A DNA stretch of 64,000 nucleotides from Physcomitrium patens. Taxonomy: Eukaryota; Streptophyta; Bryopsida; Funariales; Funariaceae. Under the pieces are notes generated by a model. The model was not told the origin of the DNA, ran no database searches, and was given only the letters and a program-made list of their open reading frames with translations. A program made the position numbers and the translations under genes. Positions within the stretch are counted from its first letter, which is position 1. Each line of letters starts with the position of its first letter. Of the stretch, positions 575-62,062 are shown one piece after another. The DNA lies in contig NC_037254.1 in NCBI RefSeq assembly GCF_000002425.4, positions 8,476,144-8,540,143 of the forward strand, read 5' to 3'.

Positions 575-1135
575 TGTCAAGGACAAGAACTCGATGAAAA
601 AATAATTCAAACAAGTGAGCCTTCACTCAAAGAGAGGTAACAAAATATATATAAACAAGTATATATATTGAAAGAGAAACTGGAATGGCTATTGCCAAAA
701 GACAAGAAAACTAGAGACCCTTGGAACTAGACTAGAAGCAAGAAAGGAGTTGACAAGAATGAAGAAGCCTTCACTCTTGTCTCTATATATATTATCAAAT
801 TAGGAGCTATGTGGCGACGTTCTATAGGACCTCCAATATGTGTTGACTTTGTAGGACACATGCCTTGACTTACAAGGCAAGTTCTTCTATGTGTGGGCCA
901 CATAGTTAGCTTGATCTTCAAGCTAACAACATGTGTGGTACATGGCGAACTTGTTGACCACGTTTCTAATCCAAAAAGTCAATTAAAGACACCTATGAAG
1001 TCAAAGCAACGTCTATAAAGCTTCTAGGAAGCTCCCATATTAAATACTATAGAATTTACTTATTTTTACCTACTTTTACTTACTTCTACCTAATTATATA
1101 TGTAATTACTAGCTTATATGATTATGTCTGTGACG
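575..1135 (-). repeat. B1 3' LTR
   Basis: It is 561 bp and matches 19423-19983. It begins tgtcaagg and ends tgacg, where the other copy ends tgaca. A TATA-like run, read on the minus strand, lies near 782-797. The sequence just inside it (1136-1150), read on the minus strand, is the purine tract AGAAGGGGGGATAT, a polypurine tract. Confidence 0.93.
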
Positions 1136-1276
1136 ATATCCCCCCTTCTAGAGACGAGTTCTACGAGGAGCAATCATCATATGTCGAGAAAATCTATGAT
1201 GCGACGAATTATATTTGCCACATACTCTGATCTTTGTTCTCTTCGAAGATGATTGATAGGGCCTTTCAACCATCGG

Positions 1277-2539
1277 TGTCGTATTACGTACTTTCTTGCT
1301 CGAGAACGTGCCGGGCGTCTGGCTGTAGAAGGTAGTATGGAGATTCACCAATAGTCAAGCAGTCTATCAGTTTTTGACTGCTGGAATATAAACGACTGCA
1401 ACAATGTATCGTAAATCTATATGGATGCTCTTCGACTGCTTGTCGAAGTCTTTTTTTTTGCCCCAGCCGATAGGTCTCTAGACGTTACAGAGAACCCCGA
1501 ACAACCCAAACTGTTAATCTTCAATACCCCTTTGTACTTACGATCTTGTATCCACTGACTGTCCTGTTAGATTAATCCAATAAATTTCATTCACTCCGCA
1601 TACTCAATCCTATAGACACCCCTTTAATCCTTCAATCATAGACGTAACTCGATTTTACAAAACAGTCAAGAGTATTCAAACCCACTTCATTTAAAAATCC
1701 CGATTCACCATTACAACACTGACTTCAGCAGCGATTGCCTCAGTCTTCCCAAAACTCTACGAAGAAGAAAAATCCAAATTCTATGTCTTTCCTTCCCCGA
1801 CCCGAAGCATGAAGCTCCTCTCTCTAATTCCCTTGATCTTCAAAAACCTCCCTCCCTAAAACTATATTCTCCCCTAATCTTATCCTCTGAATTTCTTCAA
1901 TCTTCCATCTTAGATCCAGAATTGGCTCCCGCCGTCAGAGCTTAGATCCGAAATTGGCTCACGTCATCAAGGCCTTCTCCTTCGTTTTTACCTTTAAGAG
2001 ATCAATTTACCGTAAACAATGTTCCCTGAAACGGCACAGAGAACAGGACAGCCCGAAACAGAATCGAAATCCCGTAATCTGGACCACATTGAGTCGCCCG
2101 ACCAATTCAGGTCCTATATTGGTAAAGATGCCCGTAGTAACCTGGATGTTCCCGTAATTGGGTCAAATTGGTCCTCGCGTCAGATTGGCTAAGACCTGTA
2201 GTAAGACCTGGATTTCTCGTAATTAGACTGCATTGGGTTGACCGGCCAATTCAGGTCTCATATTGGATAAGAGGACCCGGATTGGATTATCGAAATTGAA
2301 TCCAATTGGCTCTTCGAACCCGTCGTGTGAATTGATCTTTCTCTTCCTGCTGACTCCCGTTATTGGAATCGAATGGAGCATTTCAGTATGCCCCGGCTGA
2401 CTGTAACGGAGTGACTGAACCTGACCACTCAGTATTTGTATTGGAGTTGGTCGATGCTCCCAATATTCGAGGTAACTGAATATTAATAAAATTCCCCTTT
2501 CTTTTTATTTTCACTGTATACTCGTGTTACAACACGACA
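1277..2539 (-). repeat. A1 3' LTR
   Basis: It is 1263 bp and nearly identical to 8522-9784. It begins tgtcgtattacg and ends cacgaca. Inside it are diverged direct repeats about 70 bp apart near 2114 and 2184, with shared text of the type attgg..aagacc/atgcccgtagtaa..cctgga. The short ORF at 1954-2157 lies in the LTR, recurs in the other LTR, and shows no coding signature. Confidence 0.95.
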
Positions 2540-2551
2540 TCCACCCCCTCT
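2540..2551 (-). other. A1 polypurine tract
   Basis: Read on the minus strand, AGAGGGGGTGGA abuts the 3' LTR, as expected for the plus-strand primer of reverse transcription. Confidence 0.85.
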
Positions 2552-2601
2552 GAACCTGTGCATCCTCCGGTATGCACCAATTTATCCAATTGCTGTTTGA
2601 T

Positions 2602-5600
2602 TCAAAATATATCCCCTACGTCTTTGTCCAGTTCGTCTTCGTCACCTTCATTTTCCAAATCACTTTCATCTTCTTGCTGCGGAATCTCTGTACCTTCATT
2701 AAGATCTTCCATATTCATCTCCGCGGGTCTTCGTTTAAATATTTTTACTCTCTTCCCTGCAATTGGTATTTTCAATTTTGTACCATCTAACTCCCGTAAT
2801 GAGTAAGTCGCATTATCATGAACAGTTGTTACAACATATGGTCCAAACCAACGTTTTGAAAATTTCCGCAAAGTACTATGTTGATTATCCAGACTATTGT
2901 CATAAACAAGTACCCAATCACCTTCCTCGATTGCTTTTGGTCTCAATCGATGTTGCTTATCGAATCGCGCCTTGTTTTGTAACCTTGCTCTTTTTAACCT
3001 TTCCAATGCTATCTGGACATCTTCCGTTCTTTGCTCCAATTGTCGAATCCTAATAGCCAGAAGTTCTTCTCTTGTCAATCCATCTTCCCATGGTAGCATA
3101 CTCCAAGTAAGTACCTTTTCTTCAATCGGCATAATTGGTTTTTGACCTGTCATAAGTTCTACTGGCATATATCCTGTCACCGAACTATGTGTTGTTCGAT
3201 CAGCCCATAATGCAAATGACAAAAGCCGTGGCCACTCTTTAACTTTCCCATTACAAGCTTTAACCAATGCTTTCACAATCGGCGGGTGATCGCGTTCGCT
3301 TTTCGCATTCCCTTCCGGATTATAAGCAGTAGTCAGTGATAGTTTAACTCCACATCTTTCAAAGAACTTACGAGCTTCTTGTGCATTTAATTCTCCACGA
3401 TCTGCAGTGATTTTTACTACGCACCCGTAACGGCAAATGACATCTTCAAGCAAAAACCTACAAATCCCCTCTGTAGATTTTGTCCTCAATGCTCTTCCTT
3501 CTACTTGATTTGATAAATCTTCACGAGCTAAAACCAAATATCTCATCTGCCATAACCCAACCGGCATAATAACCAAATCAACAACCCATTTAAAATGAAT
3601 AGCCAGAGGATACGTAGGATGAAGACCATCTCGATGTCGGATATTAGAATACGATTGACAGATTTCACATGACTCTACAAATGAGAGCACATCTCGATAC
3701 ATATTTTTCCACCAATATCGTTCCTTGAGTTTAGCAAAAGTAGCCCAGATTCCTCTATGCCCTGCCCATAAACTATCATGAAACTCCTTTAATAATTTTA
3801 GTTTTTCTTCCCTTTTGCCTATCACTCGTTGTGGCATCCCAATTCCTTTCTTCGGTCTCTTCCATAAGAATCCATCTCGAAGTAAAAATCCATATGCTTT
3901 TTTTCTTATTTGTTTGAATTTTTCTGTAGACCAATTCCCCTGCTTAGACAAGGTATTCAAATAATGACCAATATCCAATAATTCTCCTTCATAAGCTTCT
4001 TCAAGAAATAGCTTGTCTTCTCTGTTGAGATTTGATATTGAATAGAATTTCAATCCGACATCATCAATGTCTTCAACCATTTCGTCCTCCCTCTCGTATC
4101 TTACTCGAGATAGCATGTCTGCTACTAAATTGTCCTTTCCAGTGATATGCTTAAATTCTGGATTTAGTGACTTAATATAAGCAATCCATCTCAACATTGC
4201 AATATCTGGCGTTGAACAGTTAATAATCATTCCAAGCAATGGCAAGCAATCTGTTTCAATTACTACTACTGCCCCAATCAAATAGTCCTTTTCAGCTTTC
4301 ATAGCCGAAACGACTCCCCAAAGTTCTCTTTTGACTTGCGAATATGCACGCTGACGAATACTTAAAACTTTAGCCCCAAATCGAACTGCAAATCTACTCC
4401 CATTCGAATCATCTTGACCCACCGCCCATCCAACGGCAATTGGACTAGCGTCTACAGTAAGAATCACTGGTCTATTGCACTTATAATCAACCTTCCTCAA
4501 TATTGGAGGTGACATCAATAATTTCTTCAATCTTTGCATTGCCTGAATATGCCTTTCTTTCCATTCAAATCGGTAACCCTTGCGTAACAGTTCATATAAT
4601 GGATCCGCTATGTGAGCAAAATGAGGGATCCAGATTTGATAAAATACACATGCACCCAAAAACCTGCGAACTTCTGTTAAAGAACCACAATCCTCTTTCA
4701 TCCTTCCAATTGCATCAACTTTAGTCGAATCTAGTTTTCTTCCGTAAGATCCGCATAAATGTCCAACAATTACAACCTCTCGCACTCCAAATACGGACTT
4801 CATACCCGATAATGTAAGATGAACTTCTCCAAGCCGAGTTAAAATCTTTTCACAATCTTGTATATGATCAACAACATATCTGCGACACCCCCTCGTATCT
4901 AAAGTTTCATCCTTGTCTCCTTCTCTGCACCCTTTAATAGGAACATCATCCAGAAAAGGTATAGTCTTTTCCGGAATAAAATCTCTCAATACCTTATTCA
5001 TCCCATTTATCATATGCGCAACTGAGTTGGTCGCGCCTTGAGGAAGAGTGCACATTCTAACCAATCCAAGCGGTGTCCTCATCGTTGTCATATCTCTACT
5101 TCCTTCGGCAAGTTCAAATTGATCATAACCTGAATACAAATCACCCATTGAATAGATCGCCCTTCCAGCAAACGCCTCAGCAAATTCATCCACAATAGGT
5201 CCAATTCCTGCATTCCTAACAATTACAGCATTCACCGGTTGCATATCTTGAATAAACCGTAGTGACCCATTCTTCTTAGGTACCGTAAACCATCGACTAG
5301 AATACGGCGCAAATAAAGGTTCTAATATTTTCATCTTTATCTTTTCTTTCAATAGTTCCACCAATTTAAGTAAATGTGCCCTCGGTATTGGAATCGGTCT
5401 TAGATTCCAAGGTACATGCGGTACAGTGAAGATAACCATAGGTGTTATAATATTTGGATCCACACACCCAATTTCATGAGATTCGAAGGCAAATGATCTA
5501 CCTTGTTTAGCCAACATCTTTTTGAAGCAAGTAATTTCCTCCGGCAATAAAGAACCATCAGAACCAATCTTCAATTCTTCAAAAGTCTCTTCAGTAAACT

Positions 5601-6000
5601 GATGTCCAATACTCATTGGATCTCTTAAACTTGCTTCTTTTGATGCTTCTCCCATTTGTTCTTTAGAATCCTCTGGTAATGGTCCGGCAACAGGCTTTAC
5701 CTTCTTATCTGCCGTTTTATATCTCGTCTCTACTGTGACTTCTGGTGCTTGAAAAGATTCAAGCATGGTATAAACCTCTCTCGAATGAATCTCAACAATC
5801 TTATCATTATCCCCTAACCCAATAGATGTAATCAATTCCAATGAATCTTCCAGCCCATTTTCTTCATAAACACCCAAAATCCTCTCATCATCTTGCAATG
5901 TACCTATCTTGCGTAACTGTCCTTCAATATCATATAATCTTTTTCTTTCTTTTCTTTTAAAATCATCAACTTTCTTATACATAATATTTCCATTCTCCAA
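2602..6000 (-). CDS. A1 pol: reverse transcriptase, RNase H, integrase (1132 codons, open)
   Basis: This is one uninterrupted frame. An acidic linker of about 180 residues is followed by RT with FTVPKKNGSLRFIQD, LPQGATNS and the catalytic box FLDDVPI in place of the usual Y/F-x-DD-I. RNase H follows with its acidic residues in TVDASPIAVGWAVG, RELWGV, IETDCLPL and KDNLVADMLSR. The integrase zinc finger is HDSLWAGH...CEIC. The DDE core has D in WVVDLVIMP, D in ITADRGELNAQE and E in NPEGNAKSERDHPPIV. The C-terminus has a GDWVLVYDN fold and ends in an acidic tail; there is no chromodomain. The frame is open upstream of the Met to about 6097, so the true N-terminus probably comes from a -1 shift out of protease. 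The overall look (FLDD, ER.H after the glutamate) is unlike the B and C elements here. Confidence 0.93.
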   Translation of the reverse strand: MENGNIMYKKVDDFKRKERKRLYDIEGQLRKIGTLQDDERILGVYEENGLEDSLELITSIGLGDNDKIVEIHSREVYTMLESFQAPEVTVETRYKTADKKVKPVAGPLPEDSKEQMGEASKEASLRDPMSIGHQFTEETFEELKIGSDGSLLPEEITCFKKMLAKQGRSFAFESHEIGCVDPNIITPMVIFTVPHVPWNLRPIPIPRAHLLKLVELLKEKIKMKILEPLFAPYSSRWFTVPKKNGSLRFIQDMQPVNAVIVRNAGIGPIVDEFAEAFAGRAIYSMGDLYSGYDQFELAEGSRDMTTMRTPLGLVRMCTLPQGATNSVAHMINGMNKVLRDFIPEKTIPFLDDVPIKGCREGDKDETLDTRGCRRYVVDHIQDCEKILTRLGEVHLTLSGMKSVFGVREVVIVGHLCGSYGRKLDSTKVDAIGRMKEDCGSLTEVRRFLGACVFYQIWIPHFAHIADPLYELLRKGYRFEWKERHIQAMQRLKKLLMSPPILRKVDYKCNRPVILTVDASPIAVGWAVGQDDSNGSRFAVRFGAKVLSIRQRAYSQVKRELWGVVSAMKAEKDYLIGAVVVIETDCLPLLGMIINCSTPDIAMLRWIAYIKSLNPEFKHITGKDNLVADMLSRVRYEREDEMVEDIDDVGLKFYSISNLNREDKLFLEEAYEGELLDIGHYLNTLSKQGNWSTEKFKQIRKKAYGFLLRDGFLWKRPKKGIGMPQRVIGKREEKLKLLKEFHDSLWAGHRGIWATFAKLKERYWWKNMYRDVLSFVESCEICQSYSNIRHRDGLHPTYPLAIHFKWVVDLVIMPVGLWQMRYLVLAREDLSNQVEGRALRTKSTEGICRFLLEDVICRYGCVVKITADRGELNAQEARKFFERCGVKLSLTTAYNPEGNAKSERDHPPIVKALVKACNGKVKEWPRLLSFALWADRTTHSSVTGYMPVELMTGQKPIMPIEEKVLTWSMLPWEDGLTREELLAIRIRQLEQRTEDVQIALERLKRARLQNKARFDKQHRLRPKAIEEGDWVLVYDNSLDNQHSTLRKFSKRWFGPYVVTTVHDNATYSLRELDGTKLKIPIAGKRVKIFKRRPAEMNMEDLNEGTEIPQQEDESDLENEGDEDELDKDVGDIF

Positions 6001-6077
6001 TATACCAATAAAACTCGCATCAAAGGCACCTTCATCTCGCGAGAGTACCTCCTCTTTTGTACCTCCATAATCTCGCT

Positions 6078-6989
6078 TTACAGTGGTACCTCCCCAAAAT
6101 CCTTAAATCCTTCAACAATCTTTGGCAATGGTTTCTCCCTCAACCTATCTCGATTCCGTTCATGGTTAGGAGGTACTGTTAGAAATTGTACAGCTTTCCT
6201 CCCATCTTTGCTCCATACCCTTGCATAAGCAGAACCATCGTCAAGTACCTTTGTTTCCATCCGTGTTGCCGTGATATAAGGTTGTCCTAAAATCAACGGA
6301 TAAGACGTTGTATCTAGAACGAAGAAATGTTGCTCCGTCGCAACATCCCCAATCCGAATTTTGACATCTGGACAAGTTCCATATAATTCGCCTCGTGTGT
6401 TATTAGCTGCTTGTATTGCCCATCCATGTTCCATATCAATTGGCCATTTTTGCTTCTTATAAAGATCTTTAGACATGAGATTTATTTCAGAACCATGGTC
6501 CACCAAAGCAACTATTGGTTCTTCTATATCTCTTACCTTCACCAATACCTCAATAGTTGCCCTTGCCCAATGCTTTCGAGTATAATGGCTCAAAGTTTCC
6601 ATTTCCTTGTCACTAGAATCTTCGAAACGTACTCGCTGATTATACCCATTCTTTTCATTTGTTGGTTGCTTGTAACTAATATCAACCTCTTCTTCATCTC
6701 TACATATTCTTGCATCAATAGCATGACTCATTCCAGTTTCGCTCATTAATTGCCTCTTTCGCTTAATGCTATCAATAATAACATCATGAAACTCCTTCTT
6801 TGCAATTCCCAAGACTTCTTTCAATGTGAATTCCACCTTAGCGTTTAATATACATTCTTCCAATACCCCTTTCAAATTTGTTGCCGCTTCAATGTCAGAA
6901 AGTAGCTTATAAGCAATTGATTTGTCCTTATCTTTTGTCTCCGTTGTTTTTTCTCCCAATGATGCTGAGGTATCCTTTACAGGCAATTC
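6078..6989 (-). CDS. A1 aspartic protease region
   Basis: About 303 codons lie between a stop shared with A2 (TAA at 6990-6992) and a terminal TAA at 6078. The retroviral-type aspartic protease is recognised from VALVDHGSEINLMS followed by a flap/C-terminal segment SYPLILGQPYIT. The catalytic triad reads Asp-His-Gly instead of Asp-Ser/Thr-Gly, and A2 has the same residues. The frame equals that of gag. At the 3' end the coding signal passes to the -1 frame near KDFGEVP, where both frames are open for about 10 codons. In A2 the position of the terminal stop is a sense codon (TTA), so this TAA is a private mutation. Confidence 0.85.
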   Translation of the reverse strand, partial: ELPVKDTSASLGEKTTETKDKDKSIAYKLLSDIEAATNLKGVLEECILNAKVEFTLKEVLGIAKKEFHDVIIDSIKRKRQLMSETGMSHAIDARICRDEEEVDISYKQPTNEKNGYNQRVRFEDSSDKEMETLSHYTRKHWARATIEVLVKVRDIEEPIVALVDHGSEINLMSKDLYKKQKWPIDMEHGWAIQAANNTRGELYGTCPDVKIRIGDVATEQHFFVLDTTSYPLILGQPYITATRMETKVLDDGSAYARVWSKDGRKAVQFLTVPPNHERNRDRLREKPLPKIVEGFKDFGEVPL

Positions 6990-8450
6990 TTATGAAGCTG
7001 CCTCCCGAGCCTTGTTTCCTCGAGTTTGCCTCTTAAAAGAATTTCCTTCTCTAGTATCATCAAAATTTCCTCGTCTTTTTTCTTCCATCAAAGCTTCATG
7101 TTGGCTCTTAGCAATATATGCATGAACTGAAAGAGACTCAACAGGATCCTCCCAACTTGTTGCACCTCGTATTGTAGCTGCAGTCCTCAATAACGCTTCT
7201 CGAGGTAATTTCCCTTCTTACATTGTAGAAACGGTAGAAGCCCAAAACTCACTAGTTTTCGTACTTCCACCAATTTCATCATCTACTCTAGCACCATAAC
7301 TTGCACTTTCTCGTGCTACTGTTTCATGCCCTTTTAAGTAATCTTGAACCAATGCTCTCATTCCTCCCTTGCCAAAATTGGTTTGAAGAAGATCCTCCCT
7401 ATCTTTCAATGCTATCTTCCCATCTTTCCAGCAAATAATTCCCTGCAGTATCATATTATTAAATTCATTGCAATCTTTTCTAGTGTGTGAAGCATCATCA
7501 CACCAAATGCATCTTTGTACATATCTTTGTTTTAAAACATTCTTCGAATTGTTTATAGAAGTATTCTCTTCAAGTCTTGCCAATTTGATTTGAAGATCTC
7601 GCATTCCTCGTATAATTTCTTCCATACCCATATCTGCTTTCTTTGACAAGGATGTCGAAGGTTGAACTGTAGGCATTGTCGATGGTGTAGTACGTACTGG
7701 AGCTTTGGGTGCTTGTACTGGTTTCAGAATATTACTCCTATCCTTCCTCCTTTCTTTTTTTGTAAGCAACCTCACCGCATCTTCAACGTTCTTCCACTTC
7801 GTTGTCAATCCTTCATCTTCTTCTTTGTCTTCAAGAAGGGGTTCTAATTTCTCTTGCAATTCTCCATCAGTAGCTTGAAGAAATAGATCAACTTTGTTCG
7901 GCTCCAATGTCAATTTTTCTACCTTCAATAATTGAGAGTACTGCCTCTCAAATTTCCTTAGTAGCTCTGTTGCTTGCAAATTCTTATTGGGCCATTCAAT
8001 CCATCCCAGAAACAGCTTCTTAGTAACGCGATCAGCATCTTTTAAGAAATATTCGTCTTTCAATGCATGTGAAAAATCCTCCCATGAATTCCCACAACGA
8101 TCCGTAATCGATGTAATGTGGTCCCTTATCTCCGGTATCGTGGCAAGTCCAAATAGTGCAACCATTTTCTTCTCAGAAACCCGATTTAATTCCATTTCAC
8201 GAACATAACATCTTAAATACCTTGAAATATTCCTCCCATCAAATTGATCAATTTTATTGACCACTGCTTGCAATGCTTTAGTTGCCAAAGCTTCCTTTCG
8301 ATCATTGCTTTACTGTTGCTGCATTGAAAATGAGAAGGCTTGAAACAAACTAGCAATAGACGGATCCATGTGCATACCTTGTCCTTTAGAAGACTCCCCA
8401 CTAGAAACTTCTCCCAAAAATCCTTCAAATTTTTTATTTTCGTTTTCCAT
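6990..8450 (-). pseudogene. A1 gag (capsid and CCHC nucleocapsid), with stops
   Basis: The start chosen is the ATG at 8450-8448 (MENENKKFEGFLGE), because the same start and text occur in A2. A retrotransposon gag domain follows (around YLRCYVREMELNR and FERQYSQLLKVEKLTLEPNKVD), then the zinc knuckle CIWCDDASHTRKDC, which fits C-x2-C-x4-H-x4-C. Stops are TAA at 8310-8312, TAA at 7218-7220 and TAA at 6990-6992. A2 reads a sense codon (CAA) at the position of each of the first two. The third is present in both copies. The stretch after the second stop, to 6990, is basic and lysine/arginine-rich and stays in frame with protease. Confidence 0.85.
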
Positions 8451-8521: not shown

Positions 8522-9784
8522 TGTCGTATTACGTGCTTTCCTGCTCGAGAACGTGCCGGGCGTCTGACTGTAGAAGGTAGTATGGAGATTCGCCGATAGT
8601 CAAGCAGTATATCAGTTTTTGACTGCTGGAATATAAACGACTGCAATAATGTACCGTAAATCTATACGGATGCTCTTCGACTGCTTGTCGAAGTCTTTTT
8701 TTTTTACCCCAGCCGATAGGTCTCTAGACGTTACAGAGAACCCCGTACAACCCAAACTGTTAATCTTCAATACCCCTTTGTACTTACGATCTTGTATCCA
8801 CTGACTGTCCTGTTAGATTAACCCAATAAATTTCATTCACTCTGCATACTCAATCCTATAGACACCCCTTTAATCCTTCAATCACAGACGTAACTCGATT
8901 TTATAAAACAGTCAAGAGTATTCAAACCCACTTCATTTAAAAATCCCGATTCACCATTACAACACTGACTTCAGCAGCGATTGCCTCAGTCTTCCCAAAA
9001 CTCTACGAAGAAGAAAAATCCAAATTCTATGTCTTTCCTTCCTCGACTCGAAGCATGAAGCTCCTCTCTCTAATTTCCTTGATCTTCAAAAACTTCCCTC
9101 TCTAAAACTATATTCTCCCCTTATCTTATCCTCTGAATTTCTTCAATCTTCCATCTTAGATCCAGAATTGGCTCCCGCCGTCAGAGCTTAGATCCGAAAT
9201 TGGCTCACGTCATCAAGGCCTTCTCCTTCGTTTTTACCTTTAAGAGATCCATTTACTGTAAACAACGTTCCCTGAAACGGCACAGAGAACAGGACAGCCC
9301 GAAACAGAATCGAAATCCCGTAATCGGGACCACATTGAGTCGCCCGACCAATTCAGGTCCTATATTGGGAAAGATGCCCGTAGTAACCTGGATGTTCCCG
9401 TAATTGGGTCAAATTGGTCCTCGCGTCAGATTGGCTAAGACCTGTAGTAAGACCTGGATTTCCCGTAATTAGACTGCATTGGGTTGACCGGCCAATTCAG
9501 GTCTCATATTGGATAAGAGGGCCCGGATTGGATTATCGAAATTGAATCCAATTGGCTCTTTGAACCCGTCGTGTGAATTGATCCTTCTCTTCTTGCTGAC
9601 TCCCGTTATTGGAATCGAACGGAGCATTTTAGTGTGCCCCGGCTGACTGTAACGGAGTGACTGAACCTGACCACTCAGTATTTGTACTGGAGTTGGTCGA
9701 TGCTCCCAATATTCGAGGTAACTGAATATTAATAAAATTCCCCTTTCTTTTTATTTTCACTGTATACTCATGTTACAACACGAT
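8522..9784 (-). repeat. A1 5' LTR
   Basis: It is 1263 bp and pairs with 1277-2539. The end at 9784 is cacgat rather than cacgaca, followed directly by the target duplication atcgg. Confidence 0.95.
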
Positions 9785-10047
9785 ATCGGAAGTGTCCCAT
9801 ACCAGGGGGGGAAGACCACCCAGTTATTTGATCATTGTTGAGGCCTTCGTAACTTCCTTCAAATAGAATATTTGAAACACCATCAAGAGTTGTTCCTACC
9901 ACTAGCACAATTACCAAACATCGGGAGTCTCTTCTCAAATCGTGATACCAAACGCGTTGTATCTCGCCATCTATTTGAGGAAGAACATGTCATTCTTGAA
10001 GATCTTTATGTTAGAGACATAGTTCTTAGACCTTTCTAGAGACAAGT

Positions 10048-10065
10048 TTCTAGAACCTTCTAGAA
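10048..10065 (+). promoter_or_regulatory. Heat-shock-element-like motif, four perfect alternating units
   Basis: The sequence TTCTAGAACCTTCTAGAA is TTC-nn-GAA-nn-TTC-nn-GAA. From established knowledge, three or more inverted nGAAn units form a heat-shock factor binding site. Further single nGAAnnTTCn dyads occur downstream in the LTR (for example agaatattct). It lies about 250 bp upstream of the TATA box. Heat response is inferred, not shown. Confidence 0.7.
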
Positions 10066-10304
10066 AGAAGTCTCTAGAAACTTTCAGAAGATTCCCTGAA
10101 TATTCTCTTAGAATATTCTTTAAAGATTTCCTAAAGATTCTTTGAAGATTCCCTAAATATTCCCTTAGAAGGCTCTAGAAGATTCTTAGAATATTCTAGT
10201 AGATTCTAAGAAGTTACTTGAGAAGCTTCCTAGCTCTTGGGTAGTAGCTCGAGAAGCTTCATAGTTCTTGGGAAGCTTCTTGATGCGCTTCCTTAGAACC
10301 ATAG

Positions 10305-10320
10305 GCCAATAGTATATATA
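10305..10320 (+). promoter_or_regulatory. C1 LTR core promoter: CCAAT and TATA box
   Basis: GCCAAT is followed within 3 bases by TATATATA. It is the only such pair in the LTR and sits about 160 bp from the LTR end, a normal U3 layout. The copy in the right LTR is at 14331-14346. Confidence 0.65.
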
Positions 10321-10499
10321 GGAGTCGAGGCTGAAGTGTTCTTCAGTCTCGACAACACATCTCTTGGAGTTCTAGCTCACCTTTCTGGTGTTGTTCTTGT
10401 ACTCATCTGTTTAATCTAGTTCTGCCACTTCTTCTTGAACTTCTTATTAGATTTCAAGTCTGTATTTTGTGTCCGTGACAGTTTGTCGAGATTACACTA

Positions 10500-10880
10500 A
10501 CTTGAGATATCACAGCTAGTTCTTTCTTAGTAGAGTGTGGATTACCCCTCTACTTGAAGGTATACTAACATTTTTTAGAGGTTGCGGATTACTCTCCTCT
10601 AAACTGATATTTTCTCAATCACAATATCAAAGCTTAGTTCTTTGAGGCAGAGAGTGGACTACCCCTTTCCTTGGAGATACTTGAGCGTTCTAAGGATTGC
10701 GGATTACCCTCTCTTGGACTGATATTAATTCCTTCTTTTTGTTTAGCATAGCTAGTAGAAAAGACTGTTAACATCGATTTCAGAGGTTTGCCTTCTTGAT
10801 AGAGTGCGGATTACCCCTCTTCTCGAAAGCATTGAGGCATTTTTAGAGGTTGCAGATTACCCTCCTCTAAAACTGAAATC
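10500..10880 (+). repeat. C1 leader: three hairpin-forming direct repeats
   Basis: Three diverged copies (about 10515-10612, 10634-10728, 10784-10880) share the order GTGnGGATTACCCCTC, a spacer, then TTTAGAGGTTGCGGATTACnCTCCTCTAAA. In copies 1 and 3 the second part can fold as an 8-bp stem (TTTAGAGG with CCTCTAAA). Copy 2 is weaker. Similar modules lie at 54008-54205 in C2 and near 48050 in C3. A primer-site relic of the TATCAGAGC type (here gatatcacagc) precedes them. A role in RNA packaging or translation is a guess. Confidence 0.75.
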
Positions 10881-10888
10881 GTTTAGTG

Positions 10889-10913
10889 TTTTTTTTTTTT
10901 TTTTTTTTTTTTT
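10889..10913 (+). repeat. Poly-T tract (25 T)
   Basis: An uninterrupted T run lies between the last leader repeat and gag of C1. Confidence 0.9.
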
Positions 10914-11015: not shown

Positions 11016-12064
11016 ATGGAAGTAGACCAGGTCATAGACAGTGCATCTCCACAAGTAGACAATAGAGTGGCAACTCTTGCAGATCTTCAAGCTCTTATGA
11101 ATAGTGTACGAAAGGAGATTGCATTTCTTCGCAATCCAAGTAAAGAACCTCAAATTGATCTAGTGACCGAAGAAGCTAGACGCGAAATTCATAGCCTACA
11201 ACAAGAGATTATTCGACTGAGAGAAGCAAGACATGTGTCACATACGATCCCTATAGATACTTCATGGATTAGTACGAAAGAACCAAAAGCGAGTATGCCA
11301 GACAAGTTTGACGGAACAAGAGCCAACTTCCGAGGTTTTGTGCAACAAGTACGGCTTTACCTACGCCTATATCCTTCTCGTTATCCGAATGGATTTACCC
11401 AAGTTACTTTCATAGGTACTCTTCTATCAGGGAATGCTCGCTCTTGGTTTGCTCCACTATTGGAGAAAGATTCTCCAATATTGTACGACCTAGAGGCTTT
11501 CATAGAGAGACTTACTGCTGCGTTTGGAGATAGCGATCAAGAAAGAGTGGCTGAAAGAAAGATACAAAATCTGCGACAAGGATCACGTTCTGCTGCAATC
11601 TATGCTGCAGAATTTCAACAGCTTACATGTGATCTTGATTGGAATGATAAGGCGTTCATGACACGATTTCGATATGGACTGAGAGATGATGTCAAGAACT
11701 TATTGATCACCATGCCTAAGGCGGATACTTTAGAAGAACTTATATCTCAGGCAATTATTTGTGACAACCGCCTCTTTGAATTACGACAAGAAAGACGATC
11801 AGGCTGGAGAAATGATGGAGCATTTGCTACATTTTCAAAAGGTCCAGAGAATCACTCCACAGATCCTGAACCCATGCAAATTGATGCGGTACGTTTCAAA
11901 CCCCTCACAGCTGAGGAAAGGAAGCGACGGTTTGAATAAAACTTGTGTTTATATTGCGGAGAAGCGGGCCATAAAGCTGTAGATTGTCGGAAGAAACAGA
12001 AGCCTCAAACAACAAGACTCAGGAGTACAAGCATGCAGGAAAACAAGGACGCCCAGCCACAATA
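11016..12064 (+). pseudogene. C1 gag
   Basis: The start is taken at the ATG giving MEVDQVIDSASPQV; the longer upstream frame has no ATG. Residues of the retrotransposon gag domain follow (PDKFDGTRANFRGFVQQVRL, then the region ending LRQGSRSAAIYAAEFQQL). After an in-frame TAA at 11937-11939 the same frame gives the zinc knuckle CLYCGEAGHKAVDC (C-x2-C-x4-H-x4-C). So the stop is a point mutation, and gag really ends at the TAG at 12062-12064. That terminal stop (DAQPQ*) is also present in C2 (DAQLQ*). Pol overlaps in the -1 frame. Confidence 0.88.
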
Positions 12065-12913
12065 GGGACCGTGCGGTTGGACATCTCAACATCCAAAATT
12101 AATCAAGGTCCCTTTCTCTCAGCTCAACCTTCAGATTGTTTTATGGTACCTTTACATCTGGGTATTCAAGAATTACAAGTCGATGCTTTATTAGACTCGG
12201 GTGCATCCGCTTGCTTTATAGATGAAGAGTTTGCCAAGCTTCACAATATTTCTCTTGTAAAGAAACTTAAGCCTGTCCATGTAGAAGTCATAGACGGACG
12301 ACCATTGTCTTCGGGCAATGTTATCCATGAAACTAAACCATTGAAGGTACGTCTTGAAAACCATGAGAGCAATATTGTGTTTAATGTTATCAAGACCCCT
12401 TCATGTCCTATCATTTTGGGACTATCTTGGCTTGATAGATATAATCCATTGATAGATTGGAAGTTGCAAAAAGTGACATTTCCAACAAACTATTTGAAGG
12501 TGGAATCTGCCAAGATAATGTCTAGAAACAAATCCTTGTTTATAGGTGCAAGGGCTTTCATGAAGGAAGTCAAGCAAAATACACCTCTTGTCATCTTCGC
12601 AACTCCGACTCGAGAAGATGCAACTCCGACTTTGGTTATTCCAAAGCAGTATGAAGAATTCAAAGATGTCTTTGAAAAGAAGATTGCTGATATGCTGCCA
12701 GAGCATCGACCCTATGACTATGCCATTGAATTGCAAGAAGGAGCACAACCACCTTTTGGACCAATCTACAATTTGTCGCTGACGGAGTTGACTGAGTTGC
12801 GGAAGTACATTGACGAGAATCTAGCCAAGAACTTCATGCGTCAACTCAATAAACGCCATTCTTTTTCAATTATAGATACCATCCGAAGCTTGACTTATGG
12901 AGTTTGTCAATGA
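11984..12913 (+). pseudogene. C1 protease and start of RT, fused by deletion to integrase sequence
   Basis: The frame is -1 relative to gag and overlaps its end. Protease carries the canonical ALLDSGASACFIDEEFA and the downstream PIILGLSWLDRYNP. The first RT block (PPFGPIYNLSLTELTELRKYI, then NLAKNFM) follows. At 12833-12837 the sequence jumps, through a TTCAT microhomology, into the integrase region, where it runs in the wrong frame and stops at 12913. About 2 kb encoding RT palm, RNase H and the integrase core are absent compared with C2. Confidence 0.88.
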
Positions 12914-13491
12914 TTAACAATTCGGCAGCTGAAGGATTGGTGAAGGAGCTTTCGCAGCTTCAAACTACATTGAAGCTTCAATTGTAAACTGCCCAAGAAT
13001 CTTACAAGGCGTCCGCGGACAAATTTCAGAATCAGGCACCTAAATTCACGATTGGAGACAAAGTTTGGCTGCTTCGACGAAATATTAAGACCAAGCGATG
13101 ATGTGATAAATTGGACTATCGGAGATTGGGACCATTTGTTATCCAGAAGCAGATCAATCCTGTAGCGTATCATCTGGAGTTACCAGCTACTATGAAGGTA
13201 CATCCTGTCTTTCATGTTTCTTTGTTGGAGCCTTATCGAGAATCGTCTTTTCCTGGAAGAGTACAATGTCCACCACCTAGCATAGAAATAGAGAACCACG
13301 AAGAATACGAGGTGGAAAAGGTCCTGGATTCACGGCAAAGACGGGGTAAATTAGAATACTTTGTGCATTGGAGCGGTTACGATATTAATGAACGAACATG
13401 GGAGCCGGCCAAAAATCTCGCGAATGTGCCACAAAAAGTACAGGAGTTTCATCGACGATATCCTGAGAAACCCAAGCCGGTTCGACGATAG
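12914..13491 (+). pseudogene. C1 integrase C-terminus and chromodomain
   Basis: From about 13105 the frame is open and gives the integrase C-terminal [17 protein letters not shown] segment with [13 protein letters not shown] chromodomain follows: [20 protein letters not shown], then [15 protein letters not shown]. The aromatic/acidic residues typical of plant chromovirus chromodomains are present. A TGA just upstream (near 13100) breaks the link to the integrase core. The frame ends with TAG at 13489-13491. From family knowledge, chromodomains steer integration toward particular chromatin. Confidence 0.85.
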
Positions 13492-13636
13492 CTTCTTACT
13501 GAAGCTTGCTCATCCAGAAAACAGAAAAGAGGAGAGAGCACCACCAAAATCCATAGTTGATGTAGTCATTCTCTCCAAGATAGCGTAGAGCTTTGTTAGT
13601 AGCCCAAGTTTGTTCTTATTGTTTTAGCCTTTGAAT

Positions 13637-13984
13637 ATGGATAGCCAAGATACTACACTTGTCATGTCATCTCAAGCAACTAGCTCACGAAGACGACCGC
13701 GAGATGAAGAACCGCCTACACCACGACGACGTCGAAGGATTCTGAGCAACAGATCGCTGGTGATTGTATTTGAGGTCGAGCCTGCCTACAATGGTCAGCC
13801 AGAAGGAGTGTTTGCAGGACAATTTCACAATGAAGACACGGAGGTTCATGCTTGGTCAGAAGTTGAAGGCGTGGGCCACTACCGTTGGCTTCAAGGACCA
13901 TTGAATCACTTCCCTCGTGAACAACAATTGGAGTTCATAGCAGAGGTTATGCGACAGATCTTTATTTTCTTGCGTTGGTATTGA
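13637..13984 (+). CDS. C1 extra ORF (aORF), 115 residues, open, unknown function
   Basis: The ATG at 13637 lies about 145 bases after the chromodomain stop and about 35 bases before the polypurine tract. The N-terminal third is serine-rich and then strongly basic (SSRRRPRDEEPPTPRRRRR), like a bipartite nuclear-localisation signal. The C-terminal two thirds hold LVIVFEVEP, then HAWSEVEGVGHYRWLQGP, then a probable amphipathic helix with EQQLEFIAEVMRQ. No signal peptide, membrane helix or cysteine motif is seen. The same ORF, at the same place, is recognisable in C2, B1, B2, B3, B5 (partial) and B6. In C1 it has no stop although gag is interrupted and most of pol is deleted. I do not recognise the fold. 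Confidence 0.82.
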   Translation: MDSQDTTLVMSSQATSSRRRPRDEEPPTPRRRRRILSNRSLVIVFEVEPAYNGQPEGVFAGQFHNEDTEVHAWSEVEGVGHYRWLQGPLNHFPREQQLEFIAEVMRQIFIFLRWY

Positions 13985-14019: not shown

Positions 14020-14034
14020 TAAAGGAGGAGGTGA
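14020..14034 (+). other. C1 polypurine tract
   Basis: AAAGGAGGAGGTGA abuts the right LTR. A matching purine tract lies at the same place in C2 (about 59279-59290). Confidence 0.8.
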
Positions 14035-14506
14035 TATTAGGGACATAGTCCTTAGACCTTTCTAGAGACAAGTTTCTAGAACCTTCTAGAAAGAAGTCTC
14101 TAGAAACTTTCAGAAGATTCCCTGAATATTCTCTTAGAATATCCTTTAAAGATTCCCTAAAGATTCTTTGAAGATTCCCTAAATATTCCCTTAGAAGGCT
14201 CTAGAAGATTCTTAGAATATTCTAGTAGATTCTAAGAAGTTACTTGAGAAGCTTCCTAGCTCTTGGGTAGTTGCTCGAGAAGCTTCATAGTTCTTGGGAA
14301 GCTTCTTGATGCGCTTCCTTAGAACCATAGGCCAATAGTATATATAGGAGTCGAGGCTGAAGAGTTCTTCAGTCTCGACAACACATCTCTTGGAGTTCTA
14401 GCTCACCTTTTTGGTGTTGTTCTTGTACTCATCTGTTTAATCTAGTTCTGCCACTTCTTCTTGAACTTCTTATTAGATTTCAAGTCTGTATTTTGTGTCC
14501 GTGACA
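14035..14506 (+). repeat. C1 3' LTR
   Basis: It is 472 bp. The first bases are tattag, where the left LTR has tgttag. The four-unit heat-shock-like motif is preserved perfectly at 14074-14091, and the CCAAT/TATA pair at 14331-14346. Confidence 0.95.
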
Positions 14507-14814
14507 CTTTATCTCGATTACGTCATCTTGAAGGTTGTGACAATCGTAATGTCTCATCCGACAGGTCAGCAAATGAAGGCTCTTGAGTCGAATCCATTGG
14601 TTGTTGGTTTTCCATCTCCTGAGCGTCACTACTACAAAAAAGCTATGAACAAGAATTGAAAGTAGAATGTTATCTTGCCTAGATGTTGTTTCTTTTATAA
14701 AGAAGGTTTTCATCTTGATTTTAATGGATGTCGTCGATGAAAAGCCTCCACTGCCTTTGGTGCATTTGCAAGATTCTTTATTGGCTCCCATGTGCATTCA
14801 CTAATACCATATCC

Positions 14815-27400: not shown

Positions 27401-28372
27401 TTTTACATTGGTGATAGGTATAATTACTTTATCGTAATATTAAAATTATTTGTCTTTGTGACAAATTAGATTATCATAGATTTGAACCATTTCTTATTTG
27501 TGAACAAATCAATCATATTGCTTATTGATTACATCTATCAAAGTTTATGAAAATCCATTCCATATTTTACATGACTTTTTTGGATTCATATAAGACAATG
27601 AATATTCCAAAAAGAAGATATTTGTCTTAGACTCAAAGGGTCAAATGTCTTAGAATCAAAGTAGTATCAATTTAAGTTGCAATATCTTATTTATTAGCAT
27701 AGATATAATATTAGCAAATAGACATGAAAGCTAACAAAAATCTTAAAAATATAATAGAAAAGATCAAAGCTTTTCATCAACAATATCTATCAAAATCAAA
27801 ATAAAGGATAACAAACCTTTGCTATAAAATAAATACAATTTAAAAAAAATTACATTCTACCTTCTATCTTCGTTTGTAGTTTCTATATACTTGTGGTATT
27901 AAGGACATGGAGAACCAATAGCCAACAAATTCAACTCAAGAGCTATTATTTGTTGACATGTTGGAAGTTATATTATGATTATTTAAATCTTTAAGATTGT
28001 ATAATATAGATAAAGACTTCAAGAATAATATGTTCTTCTTTGAATAGATGGCGAGATACAATGCATTTGATATCACGACCTAAGAAAAAAGTCTCAATTT
28101 TTGGTGATTTTATTGAAGGTAGAAATAACTCCTCATGAAATTACAAATATTTTATTTGAAAGAAGTTATGAAGGTCTCAATAATGATCAATTAACAAGGT
28201 GGTCTTTTTGCCTTATAATGGAATATTATTGATGGCTATGAAGACTTGTCAACTACCTTCAAAGAAAACAAAGATTAGAATATGTAGCAAATACAATTTG
28301 TCACATCTTTGACTTTCTCAACATGTCATCACCACTCCTCATAGAACTTGTTTTTGAAAGGGGGAGGGATAA
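24468..28372 (+). pseudogene. B2 RNase H, integrase and aORF remnant, interrupted by a solo LTR
   Basis: Plus-strand text begins at the RT/RNase H link (gaattaagaagcggaag) and continues through RNase H. The integrase zinc-finger region is FWWPQMWKAIKDFVQICDIY and the core is MDFITDLLALNSYDFIFMIV. It is split by an A-type LTR (25685-27008), then resumes with ttcaagattcttaaa and the rest of integrase. An aORF remnant from ATG 27907 to about 28328 still reads SYEGLNNDQL near its middle. The tract GAAAGGGGGAGGG (28356-28368) is the polypurine tract. There is no intact protein. Confidence 0.83.
25685..27008 (-). repeat. A-family solo LTR in B2 integrase
   Basis: It starts tatcatattacatg and ends caatatgaca, about 1324 bp, in the same orientation as the A1 and A2 LTRs. 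The flanks aatgc and atac fit a decayed 4-5 bp duplication, and B2 integrase reads through once it is removed. No internal A sequence is present. Confidence 0.8.
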
Positions 28373-42600: not shown

Positions 42601-42612
42601 TTATATATGTGT

Positions 42613-42615
<3 letters not shown>

Positions 42616-42666
<51 letters not shown>

Positions 42667-42678
42667 CATATATATATA
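42616..42678. repeat. (TA)n / (CATA) microsatellite
   Basis: The run is about 60 bp of TA with two CA interruptions. The minus-strand ORF over it (YIYVYIYIY text) is an artefact of the repeat. Confidence 0.9.
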
Positions 42679-42689
42679 GATAAAAAGTA

Positions 42690-45600
42690 TGAAGTATCAA
42701 AAACATGAATCAAAATAAGAAGAACCTTAAAATATTCTTATACAATTCAAAAAGAATAAATAAGAAGGCTATAGATTATAGATTAAAAAATAAGAAGATT
42801 ATAGATTCTTGAAATTAGACTGAAAATAACAAAAGCATTAATAAGAGTTAAGAAGGCTTCACTCTTACTTCTATATATAATATCTAATTAGGAGCCATGT
42901 AGCGACATTATATAAGACCTCCAATATCTGTCAAAATTATAAGATACATGTCTCAACGTACAAAGCAAATTTTTTAGATGTATACTATATAGTTAACTTG
43001 TTCTAAAAACTATCAATATGTATGATACATGCCTAATTTATTGACCAAGTTTCTAACCTACAAATATGTATAAAGTCAAAGCCATATCTATAAAGCTTTT
43101 AAGAAGCTTTTCTAGAAGATAATATAAAATTAATCTACTTTCACCTACTTCTATCCAATTGTATAAGTAATTATAAGAATACATTTGTATATTTGTAACT
43201 TTATTCATTTTTTTAGAAACAAGTTCGATGAGGAGTAGTTATTATATGTTGAAAAAATCTAAGATGCAAAATATTATATTTTTCATATATTCTGATTTTT
43301 TTTTCTTCAAAGATGATTAATAAGTCTTTTTAGCCATCAATGGTGTTTTATATCAAGACATAAAGACTATCTTATTATTTAATTTTTGTTGAGGCCTTCA
43401 TAATTCCTTTCAAATAAAACATTTGAAATACCATTATGAATCATTTCTACCTATAATAAAATCACCAAATATTAAGAATTTCTTTCAAAGTCTTGATATC
43501 AAATATATTATATCTTACCATCTATTTGAAGAAGAACATGTCATTCTAGAATATCTTCATCTTAATTATGTCATCTTAAAGGTTGTGATAATTATAATGT
43601 TTTGTTTGATAAGTGAACAAGTCATAGTTCTTGAGTTAAATTTTTTGGTTGTTGGTTCTCTATCTCCTTTGTGCCACAAATGTATAAAAATTATAAACAA
43701 AAATAGAAGATAAAATGTAATTTTTTTCAGATCTTTTTTCTTTTATAACAAAGATTTGCTATTCTTTATCTTAGCTTTAATAAATATTTTTGATGAAAAG
43801 TGTCAACTTTCTTTATTGCATTTATAAGATTTTTTTTTTTCCTATATAGATTCATTAATATTATATCTGTGCTAATAAACAAGATATTTCAACCTATTGC
43901 AGTGCTACTTTGAATTTGAGACTTCTTCCACATTGAATTCTTGATTATTATCCACTTCTATAAGAAGAAATAACATTTGTCTTCTCTTAGAGATATTCAT
44001 TGTCTTATATGGCTTAAGAAGAGACCTATTGAATATAAGGTGGATCTTTATAGATTTTGATAGATGTAATCAATAACCAATATGATTGACTTGCTCACAA
44101 ATAGAAAATAATTCAAGCTTATAGAAATCCAATTTATTAAAAAGATGACTAGTTTTAATATTGTGAAAAAGTAATCATACCTTATTGCCAACTTGGAATT
44201 GAGATTATTTCTTATAATAGGAATTTGTATTGATCTTTTGTTGTTCTTGAGCTTTTTTTAACTAAGCCTTCATTGTTATATGTAACTCAAATAAATAATT
44301 CACCATATCTTTTGTTGCAAGATTATTAACTTTTGAAAAGTCAAAAGCATCAAGTTATAGATAATAATCATAATTAGAAAAAATATATATTTATTGTATA
44401 ATAAAATATATTTATTATATAAGAAAATATATTATATTATTATAAATAAACTTTGCTAATAGCAAAAGAATTTTTCAATCATCTTATAGGCAATTGATGA
44501 TAAACCTCAAATATTGCTTCAAAACTTCATTTACATACTTTGTCTATCCATTAGCTAAAATTTAAAAGGTTAAATATAATTTTACATTCACCTTTTGAAA
44601 TCTTAATATAAATTAAGTTCTTCTATCTAATACAATATCTTTAGACAATCCATGATAGCAATAGATATTGCTAAAAAAAATGCTCAAGTATTTCATAACT
44701 TAAAATAGATTTTACATATTGTATAAATTATACCATTTTGATAAAATAATCTACTATCATTAATATAAAATCATACAAACTTAAGAGTAGAAGATCCATG
44801 ATAAAATCCATAGAAACAAAAGATTATGGTTGTTTTGAAATTGGTAATGGTTGAAGAAGTCCATAAGGTTGATGAAAAGGATTTTTGATCTTTAACAAAT
44901 GTCATATGATTGTACTAAGTCTTTACCTACCTTTTGTATTTGAAGCCACAAAAGTTTTTTAGACATTAGCTCTAAAGTCTTATTATATTTAAAATATTGG
45001 ATTATTAAAAAATCATGACAAGTTTGAAGAATATGTAATCATGCTTCGCCTTCTAAAATATATAATTGTTCCTTGAAATAAAGTAGATTATTCTTAAATT
45101 TGAACTTAGAAGTAATATGAGACTTAAAAAATTTATTCTTAATATCATAAATAAGAGGATCAAAAAACACACTCAATTGAATTTGTTTGAAAAATATTGA
45201 ATTAATAATTAATATTGATTTTATTGCTCAAAGATGAAAATGCTTTGGCTTCAAGAAAATTTTTATTTATTATTCAAAATCTACATCTCTTTTTTGATAT
45301 AAGATAAGAATTTTTAAAAATGACATTTGATAAATCTTATTTTTTTAAAATCAATAAGTGATTTTGAAATTAAATCTTGATAAATATATCTTCTAATGGG
45401 CTTAACAACTATTCATAACACATGTCGATATGAAACATTGAGGTTCTTATGATCCATATATATAGTAATTGGATTAGAAGCGTCTTCTAGATAATGACAC
45501 TACTTTTGAAATAAATCCATAATTGTAAGAAGCTCTTTGTTGTAAATCTCATAATTAATCTTAGCTGCTGAAAATTTTTTATAATAAAAAACTACTAAAT

Positions 45601-53956: not shown

Positions 53957-54007
53957 GTTTGTCAAGACTACACTCATCTTTCATATCAGAGCTAGTTCCT
54001 TCTTGTT

Positions 54008-54205
54008 ACAGTGTGGATTATTCCTCTGCTTGAAGGTGCTAGCATTTTAGAAGTTGTGGATTATCCTCCTTTAAATTGATATTTCTTCTATTATAATATT
54101 GGAATCTTATCTTTCTTGGAGAGAGTAGATTATCCCTCTTCTTAAAGGTTTTAAGGTGTTTTAGAGGTTGTGGAGTATCCTCCTCTAAACCAATACTGCC
54201 TTCTT
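54008..54205 (+). repeat. C2 leader hairpin repeats (two modules)
   Basis: Two copies of the GTGTGGATTAT..CCTC / TTTAGAGGTTGTGGAGTATC module end in CCTCTAAA. The second keeps the TTTAGAGG/CCTCTAAA stem. The order is as in C1, directly before gag. Confidence 0.7.
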
Positions 54206-58889: not shown

Positions 58890-59240
58890 ATGGATAGCCA
58901 AGAGATAGATACCATATCAGTCATATCCTCTCAATTGAGTATCTCACAAAGATGACCCCGAGATGAAGAACTGCATGTACTACAAAGACGATAGAGGATA
59001 CATAGTAACAGGTCACTAGTGATTGTGTTTGAGGTAGAACCTACCTATGGTGATCTTCTCGAAAGAGTGTTTGTAGGGTATTTTCACAATGAAGATATGG
59101 AAGTTCATGCTTGGTCTGAAATTGAAGGCGTAGGATACTATCATTGGTTACAAGGATCAATGAACTATTTACCATGTGAACAACAATTGGAGCATATTGT
59201 AGATACTATGCGATAAATTTTTAACTTCTTATGTTGGTAT
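58890..59240 (+). pseudogene. C2 aORF
   Basis: It is collinear with the C1 aORF from ATG 58890 (MDSQEIDTISVISSQ). Internal TGA and TAG codons lie in the basic part. It is then open with LVIVFEVEPTYGD and HAWSEIEGVGYYHWLQGS. It keeps the same slot, about 160 bases after the chromodomain and just before the polypurine tract. Confidence 0.8.
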
Positions 59241-59292
59241 TGACTCGCAATAGGAGTGCTTCTCGGAAACCTCGAAGCTAAAGGAGGGATCA

Positions 59293-61639: not shown

Positions 61640-62062
61640 TCATATGTTGAGAAAATCTATGATACGACGAATTGTATTCGTCACATACTCTGATCTTTGT
61701 TCTATTCAAAGATGATTGATAGGGCCTCTCAACCATCGATAGTGTCACATACCATGGTGGGAAGACCACCCAATTATTTGATCATTGTTGAGGCCTTCAT
61801 AACTTCCTTCGAATAGAACATTTGGAACACCATCAGTAGTTGTTCCTACTTCTAGTAAAATCACCAAACATCAGGAGTCCCTTCCCAAGTCGTGATATCA
61901 AACGCATTGTATCTTGCCATCTATTCGAGAAAGAACATGTCGTTCTTCAAGATCTTCATCTCAATTGTATCATCTTAAAGGTTGTGACAATCATAATGTC
62001 TCGTCCGATAGGTCAACAAATGAAGGCTCTTAAGTTGAATCCACTGGTTGTTGGTTCTCCAT
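61640..62062 (-). pseudogene. B3 aORF
   Basis: The frame of exactly 423 bases starts MENQQPVDST and ends before TGA TGA. It has several internal stops, mostly TGA at positions where B1 has CGA or another sense codon. The C-terminal part reads SYEGLNNDQIIGW, then HYRWLRGPINHL and a helix-like end RRIIDFLNI. It lies 94 bases after the chromodomain stop. The plus-strand ORF over it (61840-62106) is antisense. Confidence 0.8.

What the first reader, a model, noticed from the sequence alone, without database searches (positions are those of the whole stretch)
13637..13984. A conserved extra ORF (aORF) in two chromovirus families, between chromodomain and 3' LTR
An ORF of about 115 codons (family C) or 140 codons (family B) occupies the same slot in C1, C2, B1, B2, B3, B5 (partial) and B6. 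The shared core has a hydrophobic LVIV stretch, a [HY][FY]RWL.GP.NH-type motif and a C-terminal helix-like end. Family C adds an Arg-rich N-terminal segment resembling a nuclear-localisation signal. B1 and B3 both give exactly 423 bases. C1's copy is fully open although C1 has lost most of pol. It is not env-like. I know of no described domain that matches. It could be a nuclear or RNA/DNA-binding accessory protein of these chromoviruses.
Basis: partly seen in the sequence, partly recalled or inferred. Interest (0 to 1): 0.88.

Follow-up and report, generated by a model that had tools for sequence, protein, structure and literature searches.

The report
Hidden third gene of moss retrotransposons
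Two abundant families of jumping genes in a plant genome (very probably the moss Physcomitrium patens) carry, besides their two usual genes, a small third gene of unknown function that natural selection has preserved.

Summary
The ORF at 13637-13984 is a complete 115-codon frame, and homologues lie in the same slot (chromodomain end to polypurine tract) in C2 and in B-type elements. It behaves as a gene. Of the best-scoring matches in the host assembly, 128 of 150 (C type) and 137 of 150 (B type) have no stop. Between two C subfamilies dN/dS is 0.06 (core 0.04), against 0.12 in the neighbouring pol tail; other frames lack this signal. Seven of seven checked C copies keep pol sequence that C1 has lost. 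A self-priming site and chromodomain type fit moss Tcn1-like chromoviruses (no tree built). No Pfam, PDB, PHROG or viral-contig relative was found; AlphaFold gave no reliable fold. Best reading: an accessory protein with a flexible N-terminus (Arg-rich in C) and a conserved C-terminal domain, probably made from a spliced RNA and acting in the nucleus. Coding and selection are supported; expression, location and function are inferred. Single copies decay: of 8 picked without regard to this ORF, 3 are open, 4 have one stop, 1 is frameshifted. Extra 3' ORFs are known in other plant Ty3/gypsy lineages; I found no description of this one.

The parts
13637..13984 (+). aORF of element C1: complete 115-codon ORF; residues 18-34 Arg-rich (bipartite nuclear-signal-like), 40-115 conserved core
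13606..13627 (+). pyrimidine-rich tract ending in AG (13626-13627), 9 nt before the aORF ATG: splice-acceptor-like; AG present in 48 of 48 copies examined (all chosen by aORF protein score)
13111..13491 (+). pol C-terminus: SH3_Tf2-1-like part and chromodomain (Pfam Chromo E 2e-17, aa 66-116)
14021..14034 (+). polypurine tract before the 3' LTR, 36 nt after the aORF stop
   Evidence: read by eye
10009..10480 (+). 5' LTR of C1 (TG...CA); LTR pair K2P about 0.017 (8 differences in 470 columns, slice shifted a few bases from these borders)
14035..14506 (+). 3' LTR of C1
10004..10008 (+). target site duplication CTTTA, left copy (right copy 14507-14511)
10483..10491 (+). self-priming-type primer site, exact 9-nt complement of LTR 10347-10355 (26 nt after the end of a TATATATA box)
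11016..11939 (+). gag (Pfam Retrotrans_gag, Ty3_capsid; ATG chosen by eye)
12832..12843 (+). junction of C1's internal deletion (about 2.04 kb of pol missing relative to C2)
58890..59243 (+). aORF of element C2, same frame, in-frame stops
61640..62062 (-). B-type aORF (140 codons plus stop; in-frame stops)
43235..43663 (-). B-type aORF, decayed
27907..28328 (+). B-type aORF, decayed
14512..14615 (-). B-type aORF, N-terminal part, cut by the C1 insertion
9702..10003 (-). B-type aORF, C-terminal part of the same B element, other side of C1
38784..39053 (-). B-type aORF, C-terminal part, decayed
1177..1311 (-). B-type aORF, C-terminal part

Best explanation
SUPPORTED BY TESTS: the aORF is a third gene of two related chromovirus families, under purifying selection between subfamilies, at a fixed place between the chromodomain stop and the polypurine tract; the conservation is at protein level in one frame and strongest in the C-terminal core of about 75 residues. 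INFERRED: gag and pol are read from the full-length RNA, and the aORF, which starts 145 nt after the pol stop in another frame, is read from a spliced (env-style) mRNA whose acceptor is the pyrimidine tract and AG just upstream of its ATG. INFERRED: the protein has a flexible N-terminal arm (bipartite Arg-rich in C) that takes it to the nucleus or to RNA, and a C-terminal domain that makes a specific contact with a protein or nucleic acid. There it helps the element in a nuclear step, most likely export or packaging of unspliced RNA, or escape from silencing. Which step is not decided. The confidence is for the whole chain; for 'a selected protein-coding gene' alone I would say 0.95.
For: Selection: between C and D subfamilies of C-type copies (33 x 13 = 429 pairs) aORF dS 0.507, dN 0.030, ratio 0.06; core 0.04; pol tail 0.12. 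Control frames of the same columns give 2.7 and 8.5 (sense) and 2.6 and 4.8 (antisense); the one other low frame (antisense, 0.09) shares the same third positions and holds about 10 stop codons per pair; the spacer read as codons gives 0.47-0.99. C1-C2 ratio 0.28 although C2 has decayed. Genome: among the 150 scored matches per search, 128 (C query, of 14219 first-look candidates) and 137 (B query, of 20578) are stop-free, at full or nearly full length. Context: 7 of 7 long C loci (L002-L008, chosen by aORF score) keep pol sequence upstream of C1's deletion point. Acceptor-like tract: AG in 48 of 48 copies; rank 6 of 276 AGs in C1, and ranks 2 and 3 of 143 for two AGs in the B element, by a crude score. 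N-terminal Arg runs.
Against: No transcript was examined, so expression and splicing are untested. C2 has no AG at the acceptor position, and no outstanding shared donor was found in the C1 and C2 leaders. The Arg-rich arm is reduced in B, and the N-terminal 39 residues show ratios above 1 within subfamilies. AlphaFold models are poor (mean pLDDT 47.5 and 50.6) with no fold match. The 48 copies behind the rates were chosen by aORF protein score, which favours open ones and lowers dN. Of 8 copies chosen by integrase-tail DNA, 3 are open, 4 have one stop, 1 is frameshifted. The 270 gap cells of the spacer against 0 in the aORF are nearly all one 19-nt deletion shared by the 14 D copies, so this counts as about one event. 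One pol-tail copy in unselected DNA (L061) lacks the aORF.
Confidence: 0.5

Rival explanations
1. Anti-silencing factor: the protein counters host DNA methylation or small-RNA silencing of the elements, as VANC does for Arabidopsis VANDAL transposons (VANC recalled, not looked up).
For: High numbers of first-look candidates for both types (14219 and 20578). Window copies have decayed towards A+T, with many stops that look like C-to-T type changes, as expected in methylated DNA (by eye, not counted). N-terminus variable, core conserved.
Against: No DNA-binding family or fold was recognised; no methylation or expression data were available.
Confidence: 0.25
2. Rev/Rex-like RNA export or Gag/RNA chaperone protein: an Arg-rich arm binds the element's leader or RNA and a hydrophobic C-terminal helix contacts an export or capsid partner.
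For: Bipartite Arg runs in C. Leader sequence with repeated units, alike in C1 and C2 (78% over 329 columns including part of the LTR). C-terminal helix predicted in both models, at low confidence.
Against: The Arg runs are not kept in full in B; RNA binding was not testable.
Confidence: 0.25
3. Env-like protein (membrane or plasmodesmata), as proposed for 3' sense ORFs of Athila and Bagy2.
For: Same position and sense as the env-like aORF-3S class (PMC7264820, part 1 of 3 of the text read).
Against: 115-140 residues; no signal peptide or long transmembrane stretch by eye; N-terminus basic and hydrophilic. No predictor was run.
Confidence: 0.05
4. Not a gene: a passenger or captured sequence that happens to be open in young copies.
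For: Changes of the 8 copies picked by integrase DNA, compared with C1, are mostly nonsynonymous; within-C ratio 0.59.
Against: C-D ratio 0.06 at dS 0.5 over 429 pairs, frame-specific; the same frame and place in the B family at about 41% protein identity, with synonymous sites near saturation (pS 0.79) and nonsynonymous far less changed (pN 0.44).
Confidence: 0.04
5. A diverged extra chromodomain or piece of integrase duplicated downstream of pol.
For: Same neighbourhood, and a weak strands-then-helix impression in the models.
Against: Profile comparison with the B chromodomain (a single sequence on that side) gave probability 0.3%; no Chromo match in Pfam at E up to 10, with HMMER's filters on.
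Confidence: 0.05

Closest known systems
Sense 3' additional ORFs (aORF-3S / eORF-3'F) of plant LTR retrotransposons: Athila, Bagy2, SIRE
   Same: Extra ORF in sense between pol and 3' LTR; spliced RNA reported for Bagy2 (PMC7264820, part 1 of 3 read)
   Different: Those lie in Athila-type or copia elements or in Bagy2; the ones counted in the REXdb survey have at least 250 codons and are very heterogeneous (PMC6317226 passages). This one has 115-140 codons, lies in chromovirus-type elements, and has one conserved core across two families
Tcn1 clade of chromoviruses (Physcomitrella PpatensLTR, Selaginella SM-Tcn1, fungal Tcn1)
   Same: Group I-like chromodomain, PPT, self-priming-type site, moss host (PMC6317226 passages; PMC2864245 passages and its section 6)
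   Different: SM-Tcn1 is described with two ORFs, and its published lengths leave 141 nt outside LTRs, gag and pol (5704 - 880 - 969 - 3714), no room for this ORF
RLG1 and related P. patens gypsy families
   Same: Abundant chromodomain gypsy retrotransposon of that genome, transcribed in protonema (PMC7466625 passages)
   Different: The paper's main text holds no word beginning with ORF (0 occurrences); whether family C or B is RLG1 was not established here
Chromovirus extra ORFs of Poaceae (5' region; Steinbauerova 2011, recalled, not seen)
   Same: Extra ORF in a chromovirus
   Different: Recalled as 5' and confined to grasses; this one is 3' and in another lineage
SM1-Galahad short ORFs (Selaginella)
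   Same: Short ORFs downstream of gag-pol in a non-seed-plant gypsy element (PMC3350952 passage)
   Different: One of those two ORFs is the chromodomain itself, apart from pol; here the chromodomain is in pol and the extra ORF follows it. The other (316 bp) is not described in the passage

Membership tests
Tcn1-type chromovirus (element C1) | Chromodomain at the pol C-terminus | tested here: met
   Pfam Chromo E 2e-17 and SH3_Tf2-1 E 1.9e-15 in 13111-13491
Tcn1-type chromovirus (element C1) | Aromatic cage residues kept in the chromodomain (group I type) | tested here: met
   Y, W, Y at EYEV..HWSGY read by eye from the translation; that these are the cage positions is recalled
Tcn1-type chromovirus (element C1) | Self-priming rather than a tRNA primer site | tested here: met
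   9-nt exact complement 2 nt inside the 5' LTR's inner edge to LTR 10347; 5 of 1000 shuffles had one. Absence of a tRNA site was not tested
Tcn1-type chromovirus (element C1) | RT/integrase tree places it in the Tcn1 clade | not tested
   C1 lacks RT; no tree was built
Plant aORF-3S (sense ORF between pol and 3' LTR) | Separate ORF, sense, between pol and 3' LTR | tested here: met
Plant aORF-3S (sense ORF between pol and 3' LTR) | Present in most copies of the family | tested here: inconclusive
   300 scored matches in two searches, but copies without it would not be found; of 4 pol-tail loci with enough downstream sequence in 20 unselected stretches, 3 have it
Env-like protein | Signal peptide and transmembrane segment | tested here: inconclusive
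   none seen by eye; no predictor was run
Any Pfam-A family | Match to a curated profile | tested here: not met
   0 families listed at E up to 10 for the 7 members of A1 and for L056 and L013 (HMMER's filters drop most matches above about 0.1)
Rev/Rex-like RNA-binding regulator | Arg-rich RNA-binding arm and leucine-rich export signal | tested here: inconclusive
   Arg runs in full only in C; export signal and binding were not tested

The most novel reading that the evidence does not exclude
The aORF founds a new protein family: a nuclear accessory factor without known relatives, gained in the moss Tcn1 lineage after it parted from that of Selaginella, and since then needed for the spread of two very abundant retrotransposon families, through RNA export or escape from silencing.
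Probability: 0.35. Interest if true: 0.8.

Novelty: new variant of a known kind. Interest (0 to 1): 0.62.

Why it matters
Gag and Pol are considered sufficient for LTR-retrotransposon transposition (PMC7264820), and small extra ORFs fall below the length cut-off of a main survey (250 codons in REXdb). A 115-140-codon ORF with a lower dN/dS than the end of pol, in abundant families of a plant genome, suggests that these elements need a third protein. If the host is Physcomitrium, that is testable in a plant with good genetics.

Tried and rejected

Not done: a tree of the elements; searches in other mosses (no relatives held); a full unbiased copy census.

Full report
Where it is. The window is C2:8476144-8540143 of a 470-Mb, 101-contig assembly. 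Size, long contigs and the repeat content fit Physcomitrium patens; this is my inference, since the tool does not name it.

Anatomy. C1 is an LTR retrotransposon: LTRs 10009-10480 and 14035-14506 (K2P about 0.017), TSD CTTTA. Gag and a chromodomain-bearing pol end are recognised by Pfam. About 2.04 kb of pol is missing at a 12-bp overlap, 12832-12843, relative to C2. Seven of seven other long C loci (L002-L008, chosen by aORF score) match C2 upstream of that point, by 136 bases in L004 (which has an insert) and about 700 bases in the other six. So C1's loss is not shared by them; their RT was not examined. Near the inner edge of the 5' LTR, 9 nt are complementary to the LTR at 10347, downstream of a TATA box, as in self-priming elements (5 of 1000 shuffles had such a match). 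With the group I-like chromodomain this fits the Tcn1 clade of mosses and club-mosses (PMC6317226 passages; PMC2864245 section 6), but I built no tree.

The extra ORF. It runs from 13637 to 13984, starts 145 nt after the pol stop in another frame, and ends 36 nt before the polypurine tract. B-type elements have a 140-codon ORF in the same slot. C1 itself sits inside the aORF of a B element. A stop-free B copy was met in unselected DNA (L056). The two proteins share MxxQ, SRRRxRDE, an LVI[VL] strand, WS, HYRWLxGPxNH and a C-terminal helix-like end; C1 and L056 are 41% identical.

How widespread. Two genome searches scored 150 matches each, the best of 14219 and 20578 first-look candidates; 128 and 137 of them have no stop (counted). 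Being the best-scoring, they favour open copies. In 20 unselected 10-kb stretches (5.00-5.01 Mb of contigs C1-C20), 4 hold an aORF, all of B type, one of the four stop-free. Pol-tail matches occur in 6 of the 20: 2 are cut off by the end of the stretch, 3 are followed by an aORF, and 1 (L061) lacks it, apparently by deletion (read by eye). Of 8 C copies picked by integrase-tail DNA alone (8 of the 39 other hits), 3 are open, 4 have one stop and 1 is frameshifted. Single copies decay, as transposon copies do.

Selection. C1 and 47 copies, chosen by aORF score, form two subfamilies, C (34) and D (14); L016 and L034, without a recognisable pol tail, were dropped from the rates. Between subfamilies (429 pairs) the aORF has dS 0.507 and dN 0.030 (ratio 0.06), its core 0.79 and 0.034 (0.04), its first 39 residues 0.11, the pol tail 0.79 and 0.097 (0.12). 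Within subfamilies ratios are higher (aORF 0.59 and 0.31; pol tail 0.59 and 0.39; aORF N-terminal part 1.25 and 1.66), the usual mark of post-insertion decay. Other frames of the same columns do not show the signal, apart from the antisense frame that shares third positions and has about 10 stops; the spacer gives 0.47-0.99. There are 0 gap cells in the aORF against 270 in the spacer, but 266 of these would come from one 19-nt deletion shared by the 14 D copies, so I give this little weight. C1-C2 gives 0.28. For C1-L056 pS is 0.79 and pN 0.44, so synonymous sites are saturated. Choosing copies by protein score lowers dN, but could hardly by itself produce about 7 nonsynonymous beside 29 synonymous differences.

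What it resembles. No Pfam, PHROG, PDB-sequence or IMG/VR relative was found. The protein database search could not be made. AlphaFold models have mean pLDDT 47.5 (C1, 7 rows) and 50.6 (B, 14 rows; ten-residue means of the core 57-66), and no fold match stands out.

How it may work. A pyrimidine-rich tract ending in AG stands just before the ATG in 48 of 48 C copies. It ranks 6 of 276 AGs in C1, and two AGs before the B aORF rank 2 and 3 of 143, by a crude score of mine; C2 lacks it. This suggests a spliced mRNA, as reported for Bagy2 (PMC7264820, part 1 of 3 read). No shared donor stood out. The Arg runs of C look like a bipartite nuclear signal (recalled motif, no predictor run). I therefore favour a nuclear accessory protein, with RNA export or packaging and anti-silencing as the two leading roles; the data do not separate them.

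Known or new. [quoted passage not shown] REXdb counted only ORFs of at least 250 codons, which would miss this one. SM-Tcn1 of Selaginella is described with two ORFs, and its published lengths leave 141 nt unassigned, so the aORF was gained in the moss lineage or lost in the other. Print searches showed no description, with the gaps named under Tried and rejected.

Noticed in passing
10009-10480 and 14035-14506: C1's LTRs are rich in GAAnnTTC units (10 in the 5' and 9 in the 3' LTR, of 59 in the 64 kb), like arrays of heat-shock elements (motif recalled), although RLG1 is reported as repressed by heat shock (PMC7466625 passage).
   Followed up: partly
10483-10900 and 53950-54200: The leaders of C1 and C2 carry repeated units of the kind GTGxGGATTACCCCTC and GAGGTTGxGGATTACCCTCCTCTAAA, alike in the two; possibly a packaging or translation signal.
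   Followed up: no
9702-10008 and 14507-14615: C1 inserted inside the aORF of a B element, with TSD CTTTA.
   Followed up: yes
2602-8288: Element A (minus strand): gypsy-type pol without a chromodomain match in the ORF scanned and without an aORF match; 300-base repeats at 1451-1750 and 8697-8996 are 98% alike.
   Followed up: no
36001-50000: G+C falls to 21-24% where decayed chromovirus copies lie, with many stops that look like C-to-T type changes (by eye).
   Followed up: no
L061:4517-4936: A decayed B-like element whose chromodomain is followed by what looks like the 3' end, without an aORF (by eye).
   Followed up: partly
53538-53805 and 59263-59470: 30-base tandem units at the two ends of C2, in or near its LTRs.
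   Followed up: no
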